Positions 4,404-19,162 of a DNA stretch of 64,000 nt are shown here, piece after piece. The notes under the pieces were generated by a model. It was not told the origin of the DNA. It saw only the letters and a list, made by a program, of their open reading frames with translations, and did no database searches. The position numbers and the translations under genes were made by a program. How positions within the stretch are numbered: the stretch's first letter is position 1; each line of letters opens with the position of its first letter. The stretch covers positions 1 to 64,000 of the forward strand of contig JAPLYO010000024.1 of the NCBI GenBank assembly GCA_026395555.1, written 5' to 3'. The stretch comes from Candidatus Peregrinibacteria bacterium (GTDB lineage: Bacteria; Patescibacteriota; Gracilibacteria; UBA1369; UBA12463).

Positions 4404-4952
4404 TTATAGGACCTGCGTAAAGGCGCCAGGCTTCTGTATGAGAAGTGAGTCGTCGTTTTGTGAGTAGATGTCTGAGAGAGATCGAGTCAAAATTTCTTGA
4501 TTCACAAGACCTGCTCGAATGATGGATGATTTATAGATCTGTGGTTTGAAGGCCTTGAGACGATGAATTTCTGCACCCATTTTTTCATCAATAATGAGCT
4601 TCTCTAATCCAAGCGTGAAGGCGAACTGGTCATATCCTAACGCGATAACATCCGGTCGAATTTTTCGAATGATATCGTATTTGTTGCCGGTACTTCCCAT
4701 AATAATCTTATCGACGAGATTAGCGTTTTTGAGATTTTTTACACGTTGTTTCTCGTGATTGTAGGGGAGTGTGCCTTTGATCTTCCTCACCGTCTCGTCG
4801 CGCGCAATGATAGCGATGACCTGATTTCCAAGCTCTCGAGCCTGTCGGATCATATTTTCATGGCCGGCATGAAGGAGATCGAATGTTCCAAAAATGAGAA
4901 CTTTCTTCACAGATGCTGCGGCGGGATTGAGATTTTGATCTACTGAACTCAT
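4404..4952 (-). CDS. ribL: Cytidylyltransferase-fold FAD synthetase, archaeal RibL-like
   Basis: Nucleotidyltransferase of 182 aa with GTFDLLHAGHENMI, the HxGH nucleotide-binding motif, near residues 22-35. It is followed by ARDETVRKIKG and the IALGYDQ segment. This combination matches archaeal RibL, which adenylates FMN to FAD, better than glycerol-3-phosphate cytidylyltransferases, which share the fold. The assignment fits the genome: the riboflavin kinase in this window (16407-18140) is fused to a Mur ligase and lacks the adenylyltransferase half of normal bacterial RibF. The substrate is inferred; a CTP:alcohol-phosphate transferase remains possible. The first 14 residues look like a disordered extension. 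Confidence 0.72.
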   Translation of the reverse strand: MSSVDQNLNPAAASVKKVLIFGTFDLLHAGHENMIRQARELGNQVIAIIARDETVRKIKGTLPYNHEKQRVKNLKNANLVDKIIMGSTGNKYDIIRKIRPDVIALGYDQFAFTLGLEKLIIDEKMGAEIHRLKAFKPQIYKSSIIRAGLVNQEILTRSLSDIYSQNDDSLLIQKPGAFTQVL

Positions 4953-14924: not shown

Positions 14925-16397
14925 ATGTTATCCTTCTGGTCATTTTCGTTGCTTCATCAACTCCTGATTCCGGGAATTATCGTATTCTTGTGGGGAATTG
15001 TTTCGTGGGGATGGCCGGTGGTTTCGGTAATTTTGTTGTCGGCATTTTTTCCGTTCTATTTCGGACCGGTGAAGTTTACCATTTATAATGTGCCATTCAC
15101 GCTGATCGAGTGGATGATTTATGTGAGTTTTTTGATTTATGTTTTGAGGAGTTTTTTGGCGTGGAGGAGGTCCAGAGAGGGGTTCATGAGTAATGTTCGA
15201 AAGCATTTCTATGGCACGTGCAAGCGGTTCACGCCAGGAGGGGATTGGAGGCGATCACTGTGGACGCCGATCACTTTGATCTTGATTGGATTGTTGTTGC
15301 CTTTGATTTCTTCTCTTTTTGAAGATTCATCGTTAGCGGGCTTGAATCGTAACTTGTTGCTGGGGATTCTGAAGGGTTGGTTTATTGCGCCGCTGATGTA
15401 TTTCTATCTCATGCAGCACGTGTTGCCGGGATTGAAGGCGATACGCAGGTGTTTCGAGTGGTATACGATATCGGCGGTTTTTTTGAGCGTGTGGGGAATT
15501 TTGCAGTTTGTCTTTCATCTCACCGTGACGCCCGATGGACGAGTCTCTGGGCCTTTTGAGTCGGCGAACTATTTGGCGCTGTACATCATGCCAGCGGCAG
15601 TTTTTGTATTGGTGAGGTTGTGGCACATATTGAGCGTTCCGCGTGAGTATGATGGATTGATCGGGCTCTTTCGGAAGATCTTTCACGTAGAGGACTCGCT
15701 CTCTCCTGTCTCTCTGGTTCGATATGGATTTTTCAGTGTGGCGTTGCTTTTTGCGCTGTATCTTACTCGGTCGTTTGGGGCTTTTCTTGGCCTCTTTGGA
15801 TCACTATTTGGCTATGGGATTTATCACTTCTTTTTCTCGTATTGGAAGGTTCCATTCCGCAAGGCTTTCCTATGGTGTTCAATTGTTTTCGTCGGTTTGG
15901 CGGTGGTTGGAGGAGTATTTTTCATTACGGGAGATAGGGGGAAGTTTAATCAAGCGTTCAATGTTACGGGTCGATCGTCTTCGTCGGTGAGGTTGCAGGT
16001 GTGGACGGTGGCTTCGGAGTTGATCGAGAGAAATTTTTTCATTGGCATTGGAGCTGGTCAGTTCGAGAGGTTGTATTCGCAGGATGCGAAGAGAATTTTG
16101 CATCAGGAACCCTATGAAAAAGAGATGCTTCATCCGCATAATATCTTCTTGATGTTCTGGCTGTCGTCCGGTTTGGTCGGACTGGTGGGATTTGTTTGGC
16201 TTATTGCGTTGCTCTTTCTGCAGGTGGCTCGTATGCAAAAACATGATGGCGTGAAGAGAATGGCCTTAGTATGTTTAACGATGCTGGTGGCTATTTTGTT
16301 ACATGGACTGGTGGATACGCCGATGTGGAAGAATGATTTAGCTTTGGAGTTCTGGATGATCGTCGGAGCGTTGGCGTCTTTGCAAAAGTTGGTTTAA
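14925..16397 (+). CDS. O-antigen ligase/polymerase-like membrane protein (Wzy_C type)
   Basis: Polytopic membrane protein of 490 aa with about ten to twelve hydrophobic segments. The large extracytoplasmic loop ends with MLHPHNIFLMFWLSSGLVGL, the HN-containing hallmark of the O-antigen ligase/Wzy polymerase family, and an arginine-containing SSVRLQVWTVASELI sits before it. Members join or polymerise lipid-linked glycans on the outer face of the membrane. Here it fits with the WecA-like transferase (19170) and ManC (38761) in making a surface polysaccharide or glycoprotein glycan. The acceptor is unknown. Confidence 0.82.
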   Translation: MLSFWSFSLLHQLLIPGIIVFLWGIVSWGWPVVSVILLSAFFPFYFGPVKFTIYNVPFTLIEWMIYVSFLIYVLRSFLAWRRSREGFMSNVRKHFYGTCKRFTPGGDWRRSLWTPITLILIGLLLPLISSLFEDSSLAGLNRNLLLGILKGWFIAPLMYFYLMQHVLPGLKAIRRCFEWYTISAVFLSVWGILQFVFHLTVTPDGRVSGPFESANYLALYIMPAAVFVLVRLWHILSVPREYDGLIGLFRKIFHVEDSLSPVSLVRYGFFSVALLFALYLTRSFGAFLGLFGSLFGYGIYHFFFSYWKVPFRKAFLWCSIVFVGLAVVGGVFFITGDRGKFNQAFNVTGRSSSSVRLQVWTVASELIERNFFIGIGAGQFERLYSQDAKRILHQEPYEKEMLHPHNIFLMFWLSSGLVGLVGFVWLIALLFLQVARMQKHDGVKRMALVCLTMLVAILLHGLVDTPMWKNDLALEFWMIVGALASLQKLV

Positions 16398-16406
16398 TCT
16401 CTGCCT

Positions 16407-18140
16407 ATGATATTTAAAAATACGGTTATATCCGGAATGGGAATAGGCCATAAGATTGGTTTTCCTACCGTGAACGTAGTGGCTCCGAATTTGGGAGTTG
16501 GTATGGATTATGGAGTGTATGCGGTGGAGGCGCGGGCGGTGGATCCTGAATATGCCGAGCTGTTGCCTTGGACGCCCGCGCTCATGCATTACGGTCCCAA
16601 GCCTACTTTTGATGTTGCGAAGATCTACTGCGAGATTCACTTCTTGCACTATCCTATTGATGGTGCTCCGAAAGAGCTTGAGGTGGCGATAAAAGGGTAT
16701 ATTCGCGGTGTGCAGAAATTTGACGGCCCGGTGAGTCTGGTTGCCCAGATGAACCGCGACAAGGAGACCGCTCTCGAACGATTTTTCAAGAGAACTACAG
16801 CGGGTGTTGTTCCTCATGTCTCTCCGAAGCCTTCTGCTCGACCTTCCCTTCGTTCACTCGTCCTCGGCTCGAACTCTCCGATTCTTTTGGCCTATCATAA
16901 ATTGAAGGCGATGGCTGCCGCGTACTACTATGGTTTTCCCGCACGCAAACTTCGCGTGATTGGCGTGACCGGTACGAATGGCAAGACGACCGTAGCGAAT
17001 CTCATTACGAATGTACTTGTAGCGAGCGGAAAAAAAGTTGGCATGACCTCAACCGTGAACTTCCGGCTGGGTGATGAGACGTGGATGAATGCGACGAAAA
17101 TGTCTACACAGAGCCCTTTTTTCATCCAGAAATTTTTGAGGAAGATGGTGGATACGGGATGCACGCACGCCGTACTCGAGGTAACTTCTCACGCGCTGGT
17201 GCAGTCACGAACGTGGGGTGTTGATTTTGACACCGTACTTCTCACGAACGTAACCGGTGATCATATCGAGTATCATGGTGGTTTCGAGGAGTATCAGAAG
17301 GCGAAAATGCTTTTGTTTCAACATCTTCTTAACGTTCCTGCGAAATCAAAACAGCCGCGAGTTTCTATTTTAAATGCCGATGACGAGAGCTTCCCGCTTT
17401 TTGATGCGATTCCTTCTGAGGAAAAAATGACCTATGGATTACAATCCGGTTCGTATTACGCCAGTAACATCAAATTGGGAGCAGAGGGAACCGATTTTAC
17501 GCTTAATACTCCCGAGGCACAGATCGATCTGCATATGAATCTTCCTGGTGTTCCAAATGTATATAACGCACTCTCCGTAGCCTGCGTCGCCCTGACCGAA
17601 CATATCTCCCTCGATGTTGTGAAACAAGTTCTCGCTGAGACCGAACCCGTTCCTGGAAGATACGAGCTCGTACGCGAGGGGCAGCCATTTCACGTCGTAG
17701 TTGATTATGCGCATAATATCGACGCCGTTCGAGGTGTCCTAACGATGTACTCGGAGATTACCAAGGCGATTGGTTCGAAACTGATCGTCGTATTCGGAGC
17801 TACCGGCGGCGGCAGAGACAAGGCAAAACGTCCCGTCATCGGAAAGCTTCTCGATACATTGAGCGATGTCGTGATACTTACGAGCGATGATCCTTACGAA
17901 GAGGATGAGTGGGAGATTATTACGATGGTTGCCGAGGGCGTGGCGCGTGACGAAGGTGAAAAATATTGGAAGATTCCTTCACGAAGGGAAGCGATCCGAA
18001 CAGCGCTCTTCATGGCCCAAAAAGGTGATATTGTCTTGATTGCTGGCAAGGGTGCCGAGCCTGTTCAGATGATCTATGGACAACGTCGTGATTGGGATGA
18101 TCGAGAGGTGGTGAGGAGTATTCTTCATGAGCTTGTGTAG
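16407..18140 (+). CDS. murE: Riboflavin kinase fused to a MurE-type Mur ligase
   Basis: A 577-aa fusion. Residues 1-128 are a riboflavin kinase domain as in the C-terminal half of RibF: GIGHKIGFPTVN (PTxN at 20-23), GVYAV and CEIHFLHY with the catalytic Glu76. The adenylyltransferase half of RibF is missing. After a linker (about 130-180) comes a Mur ligase: GTNGKTT at 189-195, then STVNFRL, TSHAL, a TNVTGDHIEYHG stretch and the C-terminal AGKGAEP loop. The pattern is that of MurE, which adds the third stem-peptide residue to UDP-MurNAc-dipeptide. The usual diaminopimelate-selecting DNPR motif reads DDPY here, so the amino acid added is uncertain. The gene starts nine bases after the ligase-like gene, so the two are probably co-transcribed. 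Confidence 0.88.
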   Translation: MIFKNTVISGMGIGHKIGFPTVNVVAPNLGVGMDYGVYAVEARAVDPEYAELLPWTPALMHYGPKPTFDVAKIYCEIHFLHYPIDGAPKELEVAIKGYIRGVQKFDGPVSLVAQMNRDKETALERFFKRTTAGVVPHVSPKPSARPSLRSLVLGSNSPILLAYHKLKAMAAAYYYGFPARKLRVIGVTGTNGKTTVANLITNVLVASGKKVGMTSTVNFRLGDETWMNATKMSTQSPFFIQKFLRKMVDTGCTHAVLEVTSHALVQSRTWGVDFDTVLLTNVTGDHIEYHGGFEEYQKAKMLLFQHLLNVPAKSKQPRVSILNADDESFPLFDAIPSEEKMTYGLQSGSYYASNIKLGAEGTDFTLNTPEAQIDLHMNLPGVPNVYNALSVACVALTEHISLDVVKQVLAETEPVPGRYELVREGQPFHVVVDYAHNIDAVRGVLTMYSEITKAIGSKLIVVFGATGGGRDKAKRPVIGKLLDTLSDVVILTSDDPYEEDEWEIITMVAEGVARDEGEKYWKIPSRREAIRTALFMAQKGDIVLIAGKGAEPVQMIYGQRRDWDDREVVRSILHELV

Positions 18141-18244: not shown

Positions 18245-19162
18245 ATGCCTTCTCGAATCGATTCCAATATCAGTGGATTTCTCCTCGTGGATAAGCCACA
18301 TGGTATAACTTCTTTCGATGTGGTTGCCTCGTGCAGGAGATTATTTGAGACGAAAAAAGTAGGACATAGTGGTACGTTGGATCCTTTTGCGACAGGACTG
18401 CTTATCATCGCTTTTGGGGAGGCGCTCAAGTTGCTCGAGTTTCTTCCGAGTCAGCCCAAGGTTTACACCGGCGATGGAGTGTTTGGTGCGACATCCGACA
18501 CGTTAGATAGAGAGGGCATTATCACGCCGCAATGCGATGATGCTACCGTGCGCGAGAAGGTGAGTCGTGAGCTTGTTGAAAAAACTATGTATCAAAACTT
18601 GCTCGGGAAAATTTCCCAGACTCCGCCAAAATATTCTGCCATCAAAATCGATGGAGTTTCTGCGCATTATAGAGCACGACGTGGGGAGGAGATTATTATG
18701 AAACCGCGGGCAACAGAAGTGTACTCTTTTGATATTCCGAGTTTTGATCCTCCGAATTTTACATTTGCGTGCTCAGTTAGTTCGGGAACCTACGTACGAA
18801 GTTTGATTGATACTCTTGGATCGCTCCTGGGTGTGGGCGCTTTTGTAGGAAGCCTGAGACGTGAGTCGATTGGGCCTTTTTCCGTGGCCGATGCACATAC
18901 GGCCGAAGAACTTTCTCAGCCCGGAGCGGATGTAACCGCGTTTCTTCTTCCCCTCGAGGCGGGAGTTTCCGAGCTCACGAGAGTTGATATCTCTCCTGAT
19001 GAACATCGACGTCTCTCGAATGGATTGGAGATCGCTCTCTCCTCTGATATTGATCTTACACAAGATATTTATGCGGCTTTTTGCGATTCTTTCTGTGTAG
19101 GTATACTTGAAGTTATTGATGGTAGTGCGCTAAAATTCAGGAAGCTATTCCATCGAACCTAA
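18245..19162 (+). CDS. truB: tRNA pseudouridine(55) synthase
   Basis: TruB (305 aa) isomerises U55 in the T-loop of tRNAs. The first domain has GFLLVDKPHGITSFDVV and the catalytic aspartate in GHSGTLDPFATGLL (about residue 45). PPKYSAIKIDGVSAHYRAR and the SSGTYVRSLIDTLG motif follow. A C-terminal PUA-like tail is present. It has its own upstream region with the 11-bp array, so it may be regulated separately from the genes to its left. The WecA-like gene begins eight bases after its stop. Confidence 0.94.
   Translation: MPSRIDSNISGFLLVDKPHGITSFDVVASCRRLFETKKVGHSGTLDPFATGLLIIAFGEALKLLEFLPSQPKVYTGDGVFGATSDTLDREGIITPQCDDATVREKVSRELVEKTMYQNLLGKISQTPPKYSAIKIDGVSAHYRARRGEEIIMKPRATEVYSFDIPSFDPPNFTFACSVSSGTYVRSLIDTLGSLLGVGAFVGSLRRESIGPFSVADAHTAEELSQPGADVTAFLLPLEAGVSELTRVDISPDEHRRLSNGLEIALSSDIDLTQDIYAAFCDSFCVGILEVIDGSALKFRKLFHRT

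What the first reader, a model, noticed from the sequence alone, without database searches (positions are those of the whole stretch)
16407..18140. Riboflavin kinase fused to a MurE-type ligase in one 577-residue protein
The first 128 residues carry the PTxN motif and catalytic Glu of riboflavin kinase, and residues about 185-577 a complete Mur ligase with GTNGKTT. The two activities belong to unrelated pathways (FMN synthesis and peptidoglycan). The fusion is in frame with no stop or start between, so it is not an annotation artefact. It might couple cofactor supply to wall growth, or simply share a promoter by fusion.
Basis: partly seen in the sequence, partly recalled or inferred. Interest (0 to 1): 0.8.

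Follow-up and report, generated by a model that had tools for sequence, protein, structure and literature searches.

The report
Riboflavin kinase fused to truncated MurE
In one genus of tiny candidate-phylum bacteria (Patescibacteria), the neighbouring genes for making the flavin cofactor FMN and for a cell-wall building step have merged into one; the merger is real and shared by three species, but the pattern points to neighbouring genes joined by accident rather than to a new regulatory link.

Summary
The fusion is real. Window 16407-18140 encodes 577 aa: riboflavin kinase (Pfam Flavokinase, residues 3-124), a variable linker, and Mur ligase middle and C domains (187-549). The same architecture occurs in two other species of the genus (82-84% identical); they form one clade (100/100), so the genes merged once. 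Both halves are under purifying selection. It is the genome's only riboflavin kinase and only MurE. Two details need correcting. The Mur ligase is not complete: it lacks MurE domain 1, the UDP-MurNAc-binding domain. An in-frame ATG (codon 169) also lies between the halves. The split relatives explain the origin: in the host order (Candidatus Peregrinibacteria) rfk sits directly upstream of murE in 62 of 71 genomes, often with overlapping stop and start, sometimes with one in-frame stop between. The same small kinase has also fused, elsewhere in the phylum, with five other partners, two of them at this same locus (O-antigen ligase; serine hydrolase). I therefore favour a bifunctional enzyme made by joining two co-translated neighbours, with no mechanistic link. 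A wider trait noticed on the way: nearly all sampled Patescibacteria MurEs lack domain 1, and MurF lacks it in this family too; I found no published account.

The parts
16407..18140 (+). rfk-murE fusion gene, 577 aa, stop included
   Evidence: same architecture in G003 (575 aa) and G002 (561 aa)
16407..16778 (+). riboflavin kinase domain (residues 1-124); PTxN at 16464-16475, catalytic Glu76 at 16632-16634
   Evidence: PF01687 E 2e-21; invariant residues; AlphaFold model pLDDT 87, Foldseek to human riboflavin kinase 1q9s E 8e-7; dN/dS 0.12-0.14
16779..16886 (+). linker (about residues 125-160), low conservation, length varies by whole codons (2-aa and 18-aa gaps) among the three fused genes
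16887..16964 (+). inter-domain helix/leader that begins the MurE part (LLAYHKLKAMAAAYYYGFPARKLRVI); corresponds to the leader of stand-alone MurE in relatives; possible internal start ATG at 16911-16913
16965..17591 (+). Mur ligase middle (ATPase) domain, residues 187-395; P-loop GTNGKTT 16971-16991; invariant Lys300 (17304-17306) in the YHGxxxYxxAK context of the carbamoylated lysine
   Evidence: invariant columns
17655..18053 (+). Mur ligase C-terminal (amino-acid ligase) domain, residues 417-549; DDPY at 17886-17897 in place of the DNPR of meso-DAP enzymes
   Evidence: invariant columns
14925..16397 (+). upstream neighbour: O-antigen ligase-like (Wzy_C) membrane protein, ends 9 nt before the fusion gene; its counterpart is fused to riboflavin kinase in G067
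18245..19162 (+). downstream neighbour truB (tRNA pseudouridine synthase)

Best explanation
The gene is a bifunctional riboflavin kinase / MurE-type ligase, formed once in the ancestor of three species of one Peregrinibacteria genus when the stop of rfk was lost and the closely coupled downstream murE was joined in frame. The N-terminal half most likely phosphorylates riboflavin to FMN. The C-terminal half most likely adds the third (diamino) residue to UDP-MurNAc-dipeptide. Each works independently, joined by a flexible linker. The fusion was tolerated because this MurE has no N-terminal domain of its own, so a foreign domain could be attached at that end. Shown: fusion, clade, selection on both halves, gene order in split relatives, repeated fusion of the kinase to unrelated neighbours. 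Inferred: both activities, independence of the halves, loss of the stop as the mutational step.
For: Three fused genomes in one 100/100 clade; sister species G001 and G004 have the genes split. Gene order tpiA-hpf-wzy-[rfk-murE]-truB-GT4-dnaG is the same in fused and split genomes. rfk directly upstream of murE in 62 of 71 order genomes that have both, often overlapping (L018: ATGCTTAG) or with a single in-frame stop between them (L009: TAA, then ATT ATG). Only riboflavin kinase and only MurE of the genome. dN/dS 0.12-0.14 (kinase), 0.06-0.08 (MurE), linker poorly conserved. Catalytic residues kept; both folds recovered. The kinase is fused to different partners in other lineages, as expected if joining follows adjacency.
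Against: No activity measured. The fused protein may be translated as two products (ATG169 conserved). rfk-murE adjacency is very widely kept in the order, which could also reflect a functional tie. In two other lineages the kinase partner (riboflavin synthase; ABC ATPase next to a likely substrate-binding protein) does look pathway-related, so not every kinase fusion need be accidental.
Confidence: 0.77

Rival explanations
1. Regulatory or channelling fusion: the kinase domain senses riboflavin/FMN and sets the rate of MurE (or the reverse), coupling flavin supply (MurB needs FAD) to wall synthesis.
For: rfk-murE adjacency is conserved across most of the order and in some genomes of another family of the class; the fusion is kept in three species with both halves under selection. 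MurB is found in 5 of 8 family genomes.
Against: Partner switching at the same locus (Wzy-RFK in G067, RFK-hydrolase in G046); linker poorly conserved and of variable length; in the sister species G001 the two genes lie about 1.5 kb apart without loss of either; some order genomes have MurE and no detected riboflavin kinase.
Confidence: 0.1
2. The kinase domain takes over the job of the missing MurE domain 1 (helps bind the nucleotide part of UDP-MurNAc-dipeptide or positions the ligase).
For: The kinase sits exactly at the vacated N-terminus; in some other Patescibacteria the vacant place is taken by a Rossmann MurC-like domain (L206, L209), so the position can accept a replacement.
Against: Almost all Patescibacteria MurEs manage with no domain there at all; the riboflavin-kinase catalytic residues are kept, as expected for a kinase; the linker is variable in length and sequence.
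Confidence: 0.05
3. The frame is open but the cell makes mostly two proteins, through internal initiation at ATG169 or linker proteolysis; the fusion has no meaning of its own.
For: ATG169 is present in all three fused genes, just after the conserved leader start; the linker looks weakly constrained.
Against: Starting at 169 would remove most of the conserved YHK leader helix that all split MurEs have; an in-frame linker kept over dS of about 1 in three species argues that read-through is tolerated or used.
Confidence: 0.08

Closest known systems
Stand-alone riboflavin kinase / RFK domain of RibF (PF01687; human RFK 1nb0, C. ammoniagenes RibF RFK module 5a88)
   Same: fold, PTxN, catalytic Glu, length
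   Different: no FAD synthetase domain; here joined to a Mur ligase
MurE, UDP-MurNAc-tripeptide synthetase (TIGR01085; E. coli 1e8c, T. maritima 4bub)
   Same: ATPase and C-terminal domains, P-loop, carbamoyl-Lys context, about 30-35% identity over about 400 residues
   Different: no N-terminal domain 1; DDPY where meso-DAP enzymes have DNPR; riboflavin kinase in front
Other Mur-ligase fusions (MurE-MurF 8f5d; MurC-Ddl, NCBIfam PRK14573)
   Same: Mur ligase merged with another enzyme in one chain
   Different: those partners belong to the same pathway
Other riboflavin kinase fusions seen here in Patescibacteria (riboflavin synthase-RFK, ABC ATPase-RFK, RFK-5-FTHF cyclo-ligase, Wzy-RFK, RFK-serine hydrolase)
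   Same: the small kinase joined to another protein
   Different: different partners; some functionally related, some not
Folylpolyglutamate synthase (1fgs, 1o5z)
   Same: two-domain Mur-like ligase without the MurE domain 1; structural match to the model
   Different: substrate; the sequence here is clearly MurE subfamily

Membership tests
Riboflavin kinase (PF01687) | profile match above curated cut-off | tested here: met
   76.9 bits against 19.6; 82.1 bits in the genome search
Riboflavin kinase (PF01687) | PTxN motif and catalytic Glu | tested here: met
   P20-T21-x-N23 and E76; T21, N23, E76 invariant in 16 sequences, P20 nearly so
Riboflavin kinase (PF01687) | RFK beta-barrel fold | tested here: met
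   Foldseek to human RFK 1q9s E 8e-7, TM 0.78
Riboflavin kinase (PF01687) | FMN-forming activity | not testable with these tools
   needs an assay
Bifunctional RibF | N-terminal FAD synthetase domain (PF06574) | tested here: not met
   absent from the 577-aa protein; kinase starts at residue 3
MurE (TIGR01085) | subfamily profile above cut-off | tested here: met
   366 bits against 257.3, model positions 68-471 only
MurE (TIGR01085) | Mur ligase middle and C-terminal domains with P-loop and carbamoylated-Lys context | tested here: met
   PF08245, PF02875; GTNGKTT and the YHG...K300 segment conserved
MurE, canonical three-domain enzyme | N-terminal UDP-MurNAc-binding domain 1 (PF01225) | tested here: not met
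   no PF01225 match in the three fused proteins or in the two split relatives scanned; P-loop only about 37-60 residues from the start in most split genes of the order
MurE, meso-DAP-specific | DNPR motif | tested here: not met
   DDPY, invariant in 14 aligned sequences
MurE (TIGR01085) | ligase activity on UDP-MurNAc-L-Ala-D-Glu and identity of the amino acid | not testable with these tools
   needs an assay

The most novel reading that the evidence does not exclude
Patescibacteria as a phylum build peptidoglycan precursors with MurE (and, at least in this family, MurF) that have discarded the UDP-MurNAc-binding domain, and in this genus the vacated end carries a riboflavin kinase that regulates or assists the ligase, giving a direct flavin-to-wall link.
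Probability: 0.1. Interest if true: 0.75.

Novelty: new variant of a known kind. Interest (0 to 1): 0.42.

Why it matters
The fusion is a clean example of two unrelated enzymes merging because their genes were neighbours, with before-states preserved in sister species; it warns against reading 'fused means functionally linked' in reduced genomes. The wider trait behind it, MurE without its substrate-binding domain 1 in nearly all sampled Patescibacteria, raises a testable question about how these bacteria recognise UDP-MurNAc peptides and matters for annotation of their cell-wall pathways.

Tried and rejected
Assembly or frameshift artefact: rejected, same architecture in three genomes with whole-codon linker differences. 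A second riboflavin kinase or MurE elsewhere in the genome: none found, with the caveat of 90% completeness; relatives of 95-100% completeness also have a single MurE. Bifunctional RibF: rejected (no FAD_syn). The stand-alone nucleotidyltransferase at 4404-4952 as the missing FAD synthetase: inconclusive; best matches are CTP_transf_like and HldE domain II, FAD_syn only E 0.002. Folding the full protein on the MurE-rich alignment left the kinase half at low confidence; I folded it separately. A mixed alignment of split kinases and MurEs mis-placed the kinase C-terminus and was not used further. Paper searches found no report of this fusion or of MurE lacking domain 1 in these bacteria; the library holds only openly licensed papers, so this is weak evidence of novelty. 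Promoter/terminator scan: no excess over shuffles. MurF survey across the phylum: match starts too scattered to read domain-1 loss from the table alone, so the MurF claim is limited to the loci read directly.

Full report
WHAT IS THERE. Window 16407-18140 (+) is one open frame of 577 codons. Pfam assigns Flavokinase to residues 3-124, Mur_ligase_M to 187-395 and Mur_ligase_C to 417-549, all far above cut-off. NCBIfam assigns the second half to murE (TIGR01085, 366 bits, cut-off 257), but the match starts at model position 68. The riboflavin kinase part keeps PTxN and the catalytic Glu (T21, N23, E76 invariant in 16 sequences), and an AlphaFold model of it matches human riboflavin kinase. The ligase part keeps the P-loop, the YHG...K300 segment, Arg470 and Glu551, and its model aligns to MurE structures with Z of about 32-39. 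The known role of these residues is from general knowledge of Mur ligases.

The ligase is not complete: MurE domain 1 (PF01225), which binds the UDP-MurNAc part in well-studied MurEs, is missing. There is also a possible internal start, ATG codon 169 at 16911, in all three fused genes.

IS IT REAL. The same fusion is in G003 (575 aa, 84%) and G002 (561 aa, 82-83%), two other species of the genus. The linker differs by 2 and 18 residues, always in whole codons. dN/dS is 0.12-0.14 in the kinase and 0.06-0.08 in the ligase, while the linker is poorly conserved. A MurE tree puts the three in one clade with 100/100 support, with the split species G001 and G004 as sisters: one merger. The window's genome has no other riboflavin kinase and no other MurE. 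It is 90% complete and also lacks detectable MurD, MurF and MurB, which relatives have, so absences in this genome are weak evidence; relatives estimated 95-100% complete confirm the single MurE.

WHERE IT CAME FROM. Named relatives place the host in Candidatus Peregrinibacteria (Patescibacteria); G005, of the same family, has a contig of the same length and content as LBUS01000002 of GW2011_GWF2_38_29. The gene order tpiA-hpf-wzy-rfk-murE-truB-GT4-dnaG is shared by fused and split genomes. Of 71 order genomes with both genes, 62 have rfk directly upstream of murE on the same strand. In several the stop of rfk overlaps the start of murE (L018), and in others both are in one frame with a single stop between (L009, L013, L032). 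Loss of one stop would fuse such a pair. That this was the actual mutation here is inferred.

PARTNER SWITCHING. The small kinase is fused to other proteins in other lineages. At this same locus: an O-antigen ligase in G067 (Wzy_C + Flavokinase in one 538-aa frame) and a serine hydrolase in G046 (300 aa). Elsewhere in the phylum: riboflavin synthase (G107, G175), an ABC ATPase (G116, G135, G152) and 5-formyl-THF cyclo-ligase (G093; G329 looks alike). Two of these partners plausibly belong to flavin metabolism or uptake; MurE, Wzy and the hydrolase do not. This makes adjacency, not shared function, the best explanation of the MurE fusion.

MECHANISM. Most likely two independent enzymes on one chain: riboflavin + ATP to FMN, and addition of a diamino acid to UDP-MurNAc-dipeptide. 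The invariant DDPY in place of DNPR suggests the amino acid is not bound as in meso-DAP enzymes; what it is stays open. No activity was tested. The only pathway link I can name is that MurB needs FAD; that is general knowledge, not evidence of coupling. A published account of Peribacteria genomes reports complete peptidoglycan synthesis genes and riboflavin conversion to FMN (PMC4736985) without mentioning a fusion.

THE WIDER TRAIT. Of about 150 Patescibacteria MurE matches listed from a spread of 287 genomes, one (G255) covers the profile from position 1; all others begin at 48 or later. In loci read directly, the P-loop lies about 34-87 residues from the first start in most Patescibacteria, against about 105 or more in intact non-Patescibacteria loci. 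In the window's genus MurF also lacks domain 1 (L192, L201), while MurC and MurD keep theirs (L034, L191). In six genomes (G190, G150, G115, G177, G110, G341) MurE instead carries a Rossmann-type N-domain that looks MurC-like; PF01225 was confirmed in the two that were scanned. I found no paper describing this, in a library limited to openly licensed papers.

VERDICT. Observation confirmed with two corrections; interpretation partly supported. New domain architecture, most likely a neutral joining of neighbours, on top of an interesting and apparently undescribed loss of MurE domain 1.

Noticed in passing
L125-L154, L035-L056, table: MurE of nearly all sampled Patescibacteria lacks the N-terminal UDP-MurNAc-binding domain; one sampled exception (G255, L126) has it.
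   Followed up: partly
L192:479-1810:-, L201:676-2007:-, L197: MurF-like ligases in the window's family also lack domain 1 (P-loop near residue 33-37), whereas MurC and MurD keep theirs.
   Followed up: partly
L206:675-2255:+, L207:697-2274:-, L208, L209:726-2342:+, L210, L211:1066-2652:-: In six Patescibacteria genomes MurE carries a Rossmann-type N-domain resembling that of MurC in front of the MurE core: an apparent domain replacement.
   Followed up: partly
L161:763-1875:+, L205:527-1471:+: Riboflavin synthase (two lumazine-binding domains) fused to riboflavin kinase.
   Followed up: partly
L175:676-1851:+, L203:496-1764:+, L204:237-1517:-: ABC transporter ATPase fused to riboflavin kinase in three genomes of one family; in L175 the upstream open frame looks like a substrate-binding protein. 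Possible riboflavin uptake coupled to phosphorylation.
   Followed up: partly
L171:1000-1851:-, L174:1492-2373:+: Riboflavin kinase fused to 5-formyltetrahydrofolate cyclo-ligase (Pfam confirmed for L171; L174 by resemblance).
   Followed up: partly
L115:846-2459:-, L117:3819-4721:+: At the same locus as the window: Wzy_C-riboflavin kinase fusion (G067) and riboflavin kinase-serine hydrolase fusion (G046).
   Followed up: yes
window 17886-17897 and MurEs of the order: DDPY motif in place of DNPR, invariant in the order's aligned MurEs; the third peptide residue in these walls is unknown.
   Followed up: no
window 4404-4952 (-): Stand-alone cytidylyltransferase-like protein; could be an FMN adenylyltransferase or a sugar-phosphate nucleotidyltransferase.
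   Followed up: partly
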